From the NCBI GenBank assembly GCA_947450025.1, contig CANFTW010000005.1, forward strand, positions 1-64,000: a DNA stretch of 64,000 nt, written 5' to 3'. The translations under genes and the position numbers were made by a program. Below, one piece after another: positions 1-3,068 of this stretch (position 1 is its first letter; each line of letters opens with the position of its first letter). The stretch is from Bacteroidota bacterium. Its GTDB lineage: Bacteria > Bacteroidota > Bacteroidia > B-17B0 > Aurantibacillaceae. Under the pieces are notes generated by a model. The model did no database searches, had not been told where the DNA came from, and saw only the letters and a program-made list of their open reading frames with translations.

Positions 1-67
1 AACTTTTTTTGTGTACATCAATGCCAATGTATAATTTTGGATTAAAAGCGGTAGTTTCTGTTTTCAT
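1..67 (-). CDS. IS110-family transposase, N-terminal fragment (partial at window edge)
   Basis: Reading the minus strand from an ATG at 67-65 gives 22 codons before the window ends. They include YIGIDVHKKS, the N-terminal signature of IS110/IS1111 (DEDD, RuvC-like) transposases; the Asp of GID is the first catalytic acidic residue in that family. The product would cut and join DNA at a target chosen by a guide RNA. No stop codon occurs in the visible part. A weak TAnnTTTG match on the minus strand (129-122) could serve as a promoter, with a leader of roughly 45-50 nt. The rest of the gene lies outside the window, so intactness cannot be judged. It is too short to appear in a size-filtered gene list. 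Confidence 0.72.
   Translation of the reverse strand, partial: MKTETTAFNPKLYIGIDVHKKS
9..39 (+). promoter_or_regulatory. Promoter antisense to the IS110 transposase start
   Basis: TTG at 9-11 is followed by a 20-nt spacer and TAATTTTG at 32-39. This is a full match to the Bacteroidota housekeeping promoter (TTG, 19-21 nt, TAnnTTTG). It lies inside the transposase gene but points the other way. Initiation is predicted at about 44-47, exactly where a 15-bp inverted repeat begins. It could be chance, but it has both elements at correct spacing. Confidence 0.45.
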
Positions 68-121
68 GAGCTTACAATAATTTTGGCAGCCATTCATTTG
101 GACTGCATGTGATAAGTGATA

Positions 122-129
122 CAAAACTA
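122..129 (-). promoter_or_regulatory. Possible -7 element of the transposase promoter
   Basis: The minus strand reads TAGTTTTG here, matching TAnnTTTG. The nearest TTG on that strand (156-154) is 24 nt away, longer than usual. The element overlaps the 3' arm of the 43-57/124-138 inverted repeat. Confidence 0.25.
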
Positions 130-188
130 CTGCTTTTACATATATGCTTTATTCAATTTGGGCAGACGTATTAGGCATTTGCAAAACT

Positions 189-210
189 TGTCCCTTCGGG
201 GACATTTTTT
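189..210 (+). terminator. UUCG-capped intrinsic terminator in the IS110 end
   Basis: A perfect 6-bp stem (189-194 with 199-204) closes a TTCG loop and is followed by six Ts (205-210). It is nested in a longer imperfect palindrome whose arms are 173-185 and 218-230. The T tract is present only for the plus-strand direction. Confidence 0.5.
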
Positions 211-244
211 ATTTTGCTTTGCAAATGTCTATTAAACTTAGTAT

Positions 245-273
245 CATTGTCAGTAACATTTCGGTAGACAATG
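245..273. repeat. Inverted repeat in the IS110 non-coding end
   Basis: CATTGTC (245-251) and GACAATG (267-273) form a 7-bp stem with a 15-nt loop. It has no T tract. Together with the palindrome at 173-230 it could form part of the folded guide RNA expected for an IS110 element. Confidence 0.35.
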
Positions 274-323
274 TTTCAAAACCCAAACTGAAATAAAGCT
301 CCAAAACGTTATTTTATAACCAT

Positions 324-2987
324 CTATTCCACAATCATTTTCTTTACACCCAACAATTCCTTACAAGTAGTTCTAACAAAATAAGCACCTGAATTAATCT
401 GTAATTTCAATTCTAACTTATCTAAACTTGTTTGCTGGTGATAAACTACCCTACCCATCACATCAATAACTTCAATCAATTTTTCACTGGCGTTAGGTTC
501 AAATACTAAAGTAAACGAGCCACTATTTACTGTTGGATAAAGTTGATAATTATACGCGCCTTTGGTGGATTGATGATTTAATGAAGTGATACTACTTAAA
601 GAAGTTTCCCAGATGCCTCTTCCAAATGTTGACACATAAACTTTATTTAAAACAGGGTTAAATTCAATATCGCTAACAATCACATTTGGTAAACCAAAAC
701 TATTATTAACCCAAGTATTTAAGCCATTAGCTAGGGTGTATACACCTATATCGGTGGCAATCATCAAATCATTCGTTCCTGAAATTTGTTTGATACAATT
801 AATAGGAATGTTTGGTAAATTAAAAGTGATATTTTGCCAAGTTACTCCACCATCACTTGTTTTATAAACCTTATCTGTGGCCGAAAAACCAGCCATACTC
901 ACATAAACTGTATTCGCATCAGAGGCATTAATTTCAACCCCAGTATAATATAAACTATCAGGTAAATTATTCGTTACATTAACAAAGGTATTTCCTCCGT
1001 CCGTTGTTTTAAAAACCATTCCATTTAATCCATATTCATACCTCACTCTTCTGGCAGCATAAATTACCAAACTATTTGTATTAGAAACTGCTAATGCCGA
1101 AATTTCTGTGCTTTCTGTGGTAAGAGAATTAGTATAAATGGTTGCTAATGGAGTCCATGACATGCCACCATCCAAAGATTGAACAACGTTTTCATGACCG
1201 ATATACAATACACCGGGTGTATTATAATCTGCAACAATCGGAGTAACCCATTCACTTTGTTCGCTATTTAAATTAGTCGATAAATTAAATCCATTAATCC
1301 CATTATTATTGCTGTAATAAAAATTACCGTACTGACTAGCCCCAATCACATCAGAAGGATTTGAAGGTAATAAACAATTATCCATACCATCCCCTCCAAA
1401 AATAGTTGACCATGTGCTAGCATTATAATACATAGAAGCATTATCCTGAGCTCCCGCAATCAATTGGCCGAGTGAGTTTTTAGAACTTGATAATCGATAA
1501 AAAGAAGAAACTTGAATGTTATCATTCATTTTTGTCCAAACAGTGGGCCAAGCGCTTGTGTTCCAAGAATCAGAAATAATAGTAGACGTTTGATAAACCC
1601 CACCATCACTGCAAACAAAATAATGACCAGATAGAGGGTGACGGTTAATTTGATGAATATCTCCATGCAAAGTTGCACCATACTGGGTCGTCCAATGCGA
1701 AACAGGAGCAAATGAATTAGCCCCATCATAAGATGCCCAAATATTAATACCACCGGTATAAATAATATTGGCATCGTAATAATCCACCATTAAACCTAAA
1801 TCATAATTACCTTGCCCTCCTGAGGCAGAACCGGTTCCTCCTTCTAAAATATTGTCCATCACAGGCATCACATTCCAAGTTGAGCCTGCATTAGTTGATT
1901 TGTATATGCCGTACAAACCCCCCACCACATCCACACATAGGGCATAAATAATATTATTGTTGGAGGGCGCAATAGCAATTTTAACACGTTGTATACTTCC
2001 CGTTAAAGGCATATTAGTGTTAAGCATTGTCCACGTATTTCCAAAATCCGTTGATTTATAAATACCAGCGTTTCCAATATTTGAAGTCATGACCCAGCCT
2101 GATGAGGCATAAATAATGGCTGGGTTAATAGGATCTTGATGCATATCCCAAAACAATGAATCTAATTTTTTTGTCCACGTTACACCTGCATCTGTTGATT
2201 TATACATCCCAGACACACCACACGCCACCACATCATTTGTATTAGATGGATTAATTAAAATTTTGCGTATTAAGGAAGCATCTCCATTTGTTAAACTATA
2301 AGTTAACCCCGTTGAGTTCCAGGTTAATCCACCATCTGTTGTTTTATAAACACCTAATCCATAATGTGTATTTCGCTTTCTGCCATCTAGATGCAAACTA
2401 ATGCCTATGTATTCAAAATCACATACCGAAATATACATTTCATCTGGATTAAGCGGATTGATTGAAATATCACTAATTCTAGTGATTGGTAAATTATCTG
2501 TGAGAGGCGTCCAAGAAGTACCGTTATTTGTGGTTTTCCAAACACCTCCTTGGGCAACACCAACAAAAAAAGTGTTAGCATTAGTTGGATGAAAGGCGAT
2601 GCAATTAATTCTGCCTATTCCATTTTCCATATAACCTGTTAAATTATTGGGTAAAACATTAGGCCCAAAAGGTGTCCAGATGGATGAATTACTTTTTTGT
2701 AATTGTTGTTGTTTATCTGCAGCTTGTCTCACTGCAATATCCCTATATTCATCAAAACCAGAAGGGTCCCCATGCGCATTGGTATGAAGTTCCATTTCGT
2801 GTTCCCATCGCTTATAACTTTTCCAATATTTTTGTTTAGATAAATCATTCGTATCCTTAAATGTTTTAAACTGAGATTTTAATTCATTAAACGTTAAAGC
2901 TCTATTGAATTTGTTTTTTATAAATGTTTGGGATATAGATGTTTTAAAACAAAAAGCAATTACTATAATAAAAATATGTTTTTTCAT
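324..2987 (-). CDS. T9SS-secreted Asp-box (BNR/sortilin-like) repeat protein
   Basis: This is an 887-residue secreted beta-propeller-type protein of unknown target. I start it at the ATG at 2987, because this gives a proper signal peptide (MKKHIFIIVIAF, ending near SQ); a longer frame adds 14 implausible residues. Throughout the protein there are many Asp-box motifs (TTDGGLTW, STDAGVTW, STDFGNTW, TSDGGVTW), typical of BNR/sortilin-like propellers that bind glycans or proteins. The last 75 or so residues form a type A T9SS sorting domain with a YPT/NSGSF start and a KKMIVE end. It is therefore probably exported by the Por system and attached to the surface. An IS110 element lies directly after the stop codon without disturbing it. 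Confidence 0.85.
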   Translation of the reverse strand: MKKHIFIIVIAFCFKTSISQTFIKNKFNRALTFNELKSQFKTFKDTNDLSKQKYWKSYKRWEHEMELHTNAHGDPSGFDEYRDIAVRQAADKQQQLQKSNSSIWTPFGPNVLPNNLTGYMENGIGRINCIAFHPTNANTFFVGVAQGGVWKTTNNGTSWTPLTDNLPITRISDISINPLNPDEMYISVCDFEYIGISLHLDGRKRNTHYGLGVYKTTDGGLTWNSTGLTYSLTNGDASLIRKILINPSNTNDVVACGVSGMYKSTDAGVTWTKKLDSLFWDMHQDPINPAIIYASSGWVMTSNIGNAGIYKSTDFGNTWTMLNTNMPLTGSIQRVKIAIAPSNNNIIYALCVDVVGGLYGIYKSTNAGSTWNVMPVMDNILEGGTGSASGGQGNYDLGLMVDYYDANIIYTGGINIWASYDGANSFAPVSHWTTQYGATLHGDIHQINRHPLSGHYFVCSDGGVYQTSTIISDSWNTSAWPTVWTKMNDNIQVSSFYRLSSSKNSLGQLIAGAQDNASMYYNASTWSTIFGGDGMDNCLLPSNPSDVIGASQYGNFYYSNNNGINGFNLSTNLNSEQSEWVTPIVADYNTPGVLYIGHENVVQSLDGGMSWTPLATIYTNSLTTESTEISALAVSNTNSLVIYAARRVRYEYGLNGMVFKTTDGGNTFVNVTNNLPDSLYYTGVEINASDANTVYVSMAGFSATDKVYKTSDGGVTWQNITFNLPNIPINCIKQISGTNDLMIATDIGVYTLANGLNTWVNNSFGLPNVIVSDIEFNPVLNKVYVSTFGRGIWETSLSSITSLNHQSTKGAYNYQLYPTVNSGSFTLVFEPNASEKLIEVIDVMGRVVYHQQTSLDKLELKLQINSGAYFVRTTCKELLGVKKMIVE

Positions 2988-3068
2988 ATACGAGTTTTGT
3001 ATATTAAAAATAAGGAAAAAGGACCACAAAAAGAAAATCTTATTTGAGAATCAAGAACAGAAAAAAGA

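What the first reader, a model, noticed from the sequence alone, without database searches (positions are those of the whole stretch)
9..210. Promoter-to-terminator unit antisense to the IS110 transposase start: possible transposition-control RNA
On the plus strand, TTG-N20-TAATTTTG (9-39) would start transcription near 45. The first 15 nt of that RNA pair with 124-138, and the transcript ends at a UUCG-capped stem with six Ts (189-210). The roughly 165-nt RNA would cover the transposase ATG and leader. Two wobble positions in the long stems (50/131 and 175/228) are G-U on this strand but A-C on the other, weakly pointing to plus-strand RNA. This is an IS10 RNA-OUT-like layout in an element class known for guide RNAs. 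I do not know of an antisense control RNA described for IS110 elements.
Basis: partly seen in the sequence, partly recalled or inferred. Interest (0 to 1): 0.72.

Follow-up and report, generated by a model that had tools for sequence, protein, structure and literature searches.

The report
Conserved antisense RNA in attC-targeting IS1111

Summary
Its 3' half and its novelty claim do not.

The window starts inside an IS110/IS1111-type transposase (minus strand, ATG at 67-65). The element ends at about 145/146. Everything beyond, including the "terminator" at 189-210, is flanking target: an attC site (integron cassette recombination site). So the 45-210 unit straddles the insertion junction.

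Relatives show a shorter antisense RNA that lies wholly inside the IS. It starts near 44, folds 43-57 with 124-138, and stops at the U-run of the subterminal repeat, about 137-142.
- 19 of 19 diverged relatives fold better on the antisense strand.
- The stem covaries, with G-U pairs on the antisense strand in 37 cells against 6 on the sense strand.
- The codons that spell the -33 and -7 boxes are among the most synonymously constrained in the gene (CAC 18/18, TTA 18/18, against 30% and 28% background).
- A covariance model built without the window finds it at 29-147 (+), E 5e-5.

The elements are IS1111-type. A downstream seekRNA region has guides that covary with the attC flanks, so the antisense RNA is probably not the guide. 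An antisense RNA is already published for an IS110/IS492-type element (ISPpu9 Asr9). Expression and effect remain untested.

The parts
2..67 (-). 5' end of the IS110/IS1111-type transposase gene (ATG at 67-65; 22 codons MKTETTAFNPKLYIGIDVHKKS), cut by the contig edge
   Evidence: The longer copy in G019 (178 aa, identical over these 22) hits PF01548 DEDD_Tnp_IS110 at 6e-11; the 77% identical full-length relative P0002 hits NF033542 IS110 family RNA-guided transposase.
9..39 (+). Antisense promoter: -33 TTG (9-11), N20, -7 box TAATTTTG (32-39), inside tnp codons 10-20
   Evidence: TAnnTTTG is the flavobacterial sigma-A -7 box, at -12 to -5 (PMC9723704). In 18 tnps the box-forming codons are fixed on rare synonyms: H19 CAC 18/18, L12 TTA 18/18, Y/F13 C-ending 17/18.
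44..140 (+). Predicted antisense RNA, about 95-98 nt: start at 44 (box end + 5), hairpin, 3' end at the U-run near 137-142; covers the tnp start codon and leader
   Evidence: fold (-32.8 kcal/mol, z -4.2, against -23.7 on the sense strand); covariance model from 19 other elements hits 29-147 (+), 36.7 bits, E 5e-5, next best in the window E 0.45. Ends are inferred.
43..57 (+). 5' arm of the antisense hairpin (in tnp codons)
   Evidence: 15 pairs with 124-138; the same arm covaries in relatives
124..138 (+). 3' arm of the antisense hairpin, overlapping the left subterminal repeat, with the TTTT (134-137) that would end the RNA
   Evidence: TGCTTTT[TA]CAT is invariant in the 19 aligned relatives, but it is also part of the subterminal repeat, so its conservation is confounded.
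125..145 (-). Left end of the IS with subterminal repeat (ATATATGTAAAAGCAGTAGTT read on minus); boundary with target at about 145/146, uncertain by about 3 bases
   Evidence: Alignment of five insertions; sequence is shared from ATATATG inward and differs outward of AGC
146..314 (+). Flanking target: most of an attC-like site (L'' 147-164, central hairpin, L' 283-299, R' GTTATTT 308-314); R'' would lie on the other side of the IS
   Evidence: Recurs without IS at G000 C1:327695, C1:328392, C17:1792, C11:2214. Outer arms of interrupted sites in G047 and L059 have different sequence and keep the pairing. G047 site heads a cassette array of about 10 attC.
189..210 (+).
   Evidence: Lies outside the IS boundary; absent from the flank of the 99% identical copy in G019

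Best explanation
The window carries the left end of an attC-targeting IS1111-type insertion sequence of Bacteroidota. Inside that left end is a gene for a short antisense RNA. A promoter written in tnp codons 10-20 fires outward. Transcription starts at the base of a long hairpin (near 44) and ends at the U-run in the left subterminal repeat, giving an RNA of about 95-98 nt complementary to the tnp leader, start codon and first 7-8 codons. Most likely it pairs with tnp mRNA, blocks translation initiation and keeps transposition rare, as RNA-OUT does for IS10. Shown here (by sequence): promoter-codon constraint, hairpin covariation, strand bias, and placement inside the IS. Inferred: transcription, exact ends, pairing with mRNA, and the inhibitory sign.
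For: Antisense strand folds better in 19/19 unique relatives (mean -22.5 vs -14.3 kcal/mol) and in 5/5 of the window-type plus G365 set. Hairpin: 92.7% of cells paired vs 86.1 +/- 1.0 shuffled, 18 double-change cells vs 6.4, both 0/500; slid versions at most 45%. G-U on antisense in 37 cells, on sense in 6; one pair is U-G in 18/19. In L059, 18 consecutive pairs on antisense, 12 on sense. Promoter codons: H19 CAC 18/18 (background 0.30), L12 TTA 18/18 (0.28), Y/F13 C-ending 17/18 (0.27); among 65 two-fold pyrimidine columns, columns 19, 13 and 17 have the highest C fraction; the rest of the gene shows little synonymous conservation (0.09 vs 0.37). Box-to-hairpin distance agrees with a start at the hairpin base using the -12 to -5 box position. 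The model from the other elements finds the window. A 50-bp left end suffices for a mini-IS of ISEc11 (PMC11187229), so constraint beyond 100 bp is not expected from end recognition alone.
Against: No transcript was seen; no expression data could be searched. The third T of the -7 box varies (TAACTT[T/G/C/A]GG) in about half of the relatives, so promoter strength would vary. The U-run is also the subterminal repeat, so terminator conservation is confounded. The 5' arm lies in coding sequence. In the one characterised IS110-type case (ISPpu9) the antisense RNA stimulates translation, so the sign is open.
Confidence: 0.66

Rival explanations
1. The antisense RNA exists but activates tnp, as Asr9 does for ISPpu9: it opens the folded tnp leader and exposes the start site.
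For: Closest experimentally studied case (PMC8450116): antisense RNA over the 5'-UTR, promoter in early tnp codons, stimulates translation. The sense leader also has a conserved inner hairpin over the start codon (helix 2).
Against: Sense leader fold is weak here (mean -14.3 kcal/mol, L059 z -0.6), so there is little structure to open; the RNA itself covers the start codon. The leader is 52-80 nt against 244 nt in ISPpu9.
Confidence: 0.15
2. The palindrome and codon constraint serve DNA-level recognition by the transposase (subterminal repeat plus an internal inverted copy), with no RNA.
For: 3' arm overlaps the subterminal repeat, which IS1111 elements need; both strands fold to some extent.
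Against: G-U pairs sit mostly on one strand (37 vs 6); the constrained synonymous sites form promoter boxes with the right spacing, over 100 bp from the end; ISEc11 mini-IS needs only 50 bp of LE.
Confidence: 0.1
3. The left end encodes the guide (seekRNA/bridge RNA) of this element, on either strand.
For: In IS110-type elements the guide comes from the upstream noncoding region (PMC11187229).
Against: Upstream region is only about 52-80 nt; a 290-325 nt region downstream of tnp carries both guides in IS1111 order, and they covary with the flanks (right: 33/40 variable letters match, shuffled 18.4 +/- 3.0, p < 1e-4; left: 158/175 vs 142.0 +/- 4.2, p 2e-4).
Confidence: 0.03
4. The reader's full 165-nt unit, 45-210, is the functional RNA.
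For: A good terminator-like hairpin lies at 189-210 in this copy.
Against: It is in the attC target, outside the IS, and is missing beside the 99% identical copy in G019. Read-through to it in this one copy is possible but not a property of the element.
Confidence: 0.05

Closest known systems
Asr9 of ISPpu9 (IS110/IS492 type, Pseudomonas putida; PMC8450116)
   Same: Antisense RNA over the tnp 5' leader of an IS with a DEDD transposase, promoter inside early tnp codons, element inserts in extragenic palindromes
   Different: Asr9 is about 180 nt on a 244-nt leader, comes with a second RNA (Ssr9), and stimulates translation; here about 70-98 nt, one hairpin ending at the IS end, IS1111-type element, Bacteroidota promoter
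RNA-OUT of IS10 (recalled; IS10 antisense RNA is cited as inhibitory in PMC8450116)
   Same: Short, stable, single-hairpin antisense RNA that covers the transposase start, made from an outward promoter at the IS end
   Different: IS10 is a DDE element with unrelated sequence; the inhibitory mechanism is proven there and only inferred here
IS1111-attC group (ISKpn4, ISPst6, ISPa25; Tetu and Holmes 2008, cited in PMC11187229)
   Same: IS1111-type elements with downstream seekRNA that insert in attC sites
   Different: Those known members are, from memory, proteobacterial; no sequence comparison was made here; no antisense RNA is described for them in the papers found

Membership tests
IS1111-type of the IS110 superfamily | DEDD transposase with IS110 C-terminal domain | tested here: met
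   P0002 hits NF033542 at 2e-60 over 13-344; P0001 hits PF01548. The window itself has only 22 codons.
IS1111-type of the IS110 superfamily | Subterminal inverted repeats | tested here: met
   ATGAAAAAGCAG / TGCTTTTCAT in complete relatives; the window shows only the left copy
IS1111-type of the IS110 superfamily | Longer noncoding region downstream of tnp, carrying a seekRNA with top-strand match 5' of bottom-strand match | tested here: met
   290-325 nt downstream vs 51-53 upstream in relatives; guides covary with flanks in the stated order. Not testable in the window copy: right end not assembled.
IS1111-attC group | Insertion at a fixed place in attC sites | tested here: met
   Flanks..TAGC left..GTTNGGC-type R'' box right, in over 20 insertions; G047 array
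IS1111-attC group | Transposase relationship to ISKpn4/ISPst6/ISPa25 | not tested
   Reference sequences were not compared; plasmid hits are all under 60% identity
Integron attC sites | R''-L''/L'-R' palindrome with variable arms, one per single-gene cassette, all in one orientation | tested here: met
   Covarying arms; about 10 sites with same-strand ORFs between them in G047
Integron attC sites | Neighbouring integron integrase (needed for a complete integron, not for a CALIN) | tested here: not met
   No TIGR02249 match over cut-off in six genomes; these are then CALIN-like clusters or their IntI falls below the model
Antisense transposase-control RNA (RNA-OUT / Asr9 kind) | Conserved promoter and structured RNA opposite the tnp start | tested here: met
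Antisense transposase-control RNA (RNA-OUT / Asr9 kind) | The RNA is made and changes transposase expression | not testable with these tools
   Needs RNA-seq and reporter fusions

The most novel reading that the evidence does not exclude
The left-end antisense RNA is not only a translation regulator but a second RNA partner of an RNA-guided transposase: it binds the transposase or the seekRNA complex and couples target choice or circle formation to element copy number.
Probability: 0.07. Interest if true: 0.8.

Novelty: new variant of a known kind. Interest (0 to 1): 0.52.

Why it matters
IS110/IS1111 elements are RNA-guided and studied as genome-writing tools, yet I found only one element (ISPpu9) for which control of the transposase by small RNAs is described. 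A compact, conserved antisense RNA gene, with its promoter written into synonymous codon choice, would be a second and structurally different control system, in Bacteroidota, and directly testable. It also warns that the first ~20 tnp codons of such elements cannot be recoded freely without losing a regulator. The side result, guides covarying with attC flanks in over 20 natural insertions, is independent comparative support for the seekRNA model.

Tried and rejected
Rfam: only sub-threshold chance matches on 1-1000. Right end of the window's element: pattern search gave only noise, so it is probably not in the assembly. Viral contigs: no relative. Plasmids: only distant IS110 members under 60% identity. 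Early idea that 45-300 was an IS110 bridge RNA on the minus strand: dropped when homology stopped at 148 and the guides were found downstream of tnp in relatives. The G000 tyrosine recombinase at C17:60929 as IntI: it is XerA-like, below the integron integrase cut-off and lacking the middle part of that model. Matches of window 1-170 in G052 and G007 read as unrelated DNA. Tetu and Holmes 2008 is not in the library. Plain sigma-70 scan is not informative for this phylum.

Full report
What is in the window. The window begins at the edge of contig C5 of its genome, inside a transposase gene on the minus strand: ATG at 67-65, then MKTETTAFNPKLYIGIDVHKKS up to the edge. A copy in a same-genus genome (G019, L017) extends it to 178 residues and matches the IS110 DEDD family. 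A 77% identical full-length relative (L059, P0002, 352 aa) matches NCBI's model for IS110 family RNA-guided transposases.

Where the element ends. Searching window 1-170 in 100 related genomes gave two true copies whose homology stops at 148 (G019, 99%; G047, 85%). Aligning five independent insertions places the left end at ATATATGTAAAAGCAGTAG (read on minus), with the boundary at about 145/146; AGC outside it belongs to the target motif. Beyond that, window 160-312 recurs four more times in the same genome, in intergenic DNA, with no transposase.

What the flank is. The flanking repeat is an attC-like site. Outer arms of the interrupted sites differ in sequence but stay complementary, for example CTTTATTCAATTTGGG/CCCAAACTGAAATAAAG (window), GCTACCAGTAATTGGCG/CGCCAACTACTGGTAGC (G047) and a third version in L059. 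The G047 copy sits at the head of about ten such sites spaced by single same-strand genes, which is a gene-cassette array. No integron integrase passes the curated cut-off in six genomes, so these look like cassette arrays without a recognisable integrase.

A larger family. A search with P0002 in one family of the same class gave 29 located homologues at 46-55% identity in 20 genomes. All with a recognised left end have ...TAGCAT(C)n-ATG(A/T)AAAAGCAG with the tnp ATG 51-53 nt inside. Complete copies have a 290-325 nt noncoding region downstream of tnp and a right subterminal repeat TGCTTTTCAT. That region carries two short guides. The right guide (AACACCGT, AACAACGT, AACAATGT, AACACTGT) is complementary to the right flank, and its two variable letters match the element's own flank in 33 of 40 cases against 18.4 +/- 3.0 when shuffled. 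The left guide (..TATAGC or CGGTTAGC) matches the left flank, 158 of 175 letters against 142.0 +/- 4.2, p 2e-4. This is the IS1111 seekRNA layout described in PMC11187229. The guide therefore lies downstream, and the left end needs another explanation.

The antisense hairpin. Folding the left end plus first codons on both strands, the antisense strand is more stable in all five of window, G019, G047, L059 and G365 and in all 19 unique segments of the larger family (mean -22.5 against -14.3 kcal/mol). On the alignment of the 19 (A2) the hairpin keeps 92.7% of cells paired, against 86.1 +/- 1.0 in shuffles and at most 45% when slid; 18 cells have changes on both sides against 6.4 expected (0/500). 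One arm is in tnp codons, the other just inside the left subterminal repeat. G-U pairs fall on the antisense strand in 37 cells and on the sense strand in 6; one pair is U-G in 18 of 19. In L059 the antisense stem has 18 unbroken pairs including six G-U; the sense strand would have 12. The sequences are related, so these counts are not independent events.

The promoter. Conservation is what counts. The G of TTG and the T of TA sit at third codon positions of H19 and L12. In 18 distinct tnps these are CAC 18/18 (background 0.30) and TTA 18/18 (background 0.28). Y/F13, just before the -7 box, ends in C in 17/18 (0.27). Of 65 two-fold pyrimidine columns, columns 19, 13 and 17 have the highest C fractions, and of 24 leucine columns L12 has the highest TTA fraction. 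Only four of 214 scored columns are fully fixed on one codon, and H19 and L12 are two of them. Mean excess synonymous homogeneity is 0.37 over codons 9-22 and 0.09 over the rest of the gene, so shared ancestry explains little. The third T of the -7 box is free. In Flavobacterium the TAnnTTTG box spans -12 to -5 (PMC9723704), which puts the start at window 44 and at alignment column 16, one base before the first helix column (17).

An independent check. A covariance model built only from the 19 segments of the other family finds the window at 29-147 plus strand (36.7 bits, E 5e-5; next in the window E 0.45). It also finds G019, G047 and L059 and four further elements that were not in the alignment.

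How it most likely works. Transcription from inside tnp starts at the base of the hairpin, runs outward, and stops at the U-run after the hairpin (window TTTT 134-137). The product, about 95-98 nt here, is complementary to the leader, start codon and first codons of tnp mRNA. The most likely effect is to block translation. The published counter-example is ISPpu9, whose antisense RNA Asr9 stimulates tnp translation by opening a folded leader (PMC8450116). Here the sense leader is short and only weakly folded, which is why I favour inhibition, but the sign is open.

Novelty. Antisense RNAs of transposases are a known kind (IS10, IS30, IS200, ISPpu9, as listed in PMC8450116). I found no report for IS1111-type elements or for Bacteroidota in the searched library, which lacks most subscription journals. 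I rate it a new variant of a known kind.

Noticed in passing
L098 (G047:C1:512000-531685), read on minus: Cassette array of about 10 attC-like sites with one same-strand gene each, its first attC interrupted by this IS; no integron integrase over cut-off in the genome.
   Followed up: partly
L019 (G001:C143) about 385-417: An attC-like site without IS that reads GGCATAACATATATGCTTTATTC: it holds ATATATGC exactly where the IS left end would be. Could be an excision scar or a target that resembles the IS end.
   Followed up: no
L138 (G1115:C12): Copy with two stops in tnp whose antisense hairpin has many broken pairs (60.4 bits against 89-101 for three other elements outside the alignment): hairpin seems to decay with the transposase.
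   Followed up: no
L114/L139, L118/L133, L127/L137 pairs: Several genomes carry two copies of the IS 4-17 kb apart, as expected if they sit in one cassette array.
   Followed up: no
G000 C17:60929-61747 (L021): 377-aa tyrosine recombinase of the XerA/integron-integrase-like model NF040815; each of the other five genomes searched also has a tyrosine recombinase with similar TIGR02249 coverage. Whether it acts on these attC sites is unknown.
   Followed up: partly
window 324-3029 (-): 901-aa protein with what looks like a C-terminal sorting tail; its stop lies just past the R' box of the interrupted attC, so the gene points at the site.
   Followed up: no
alignment A2 columns 36-41/63-68: Inner helix over the tnp start codon is conserved and pairs about equally on both strands, so the sense leader may also fold over its own start site.
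   Followed up: no
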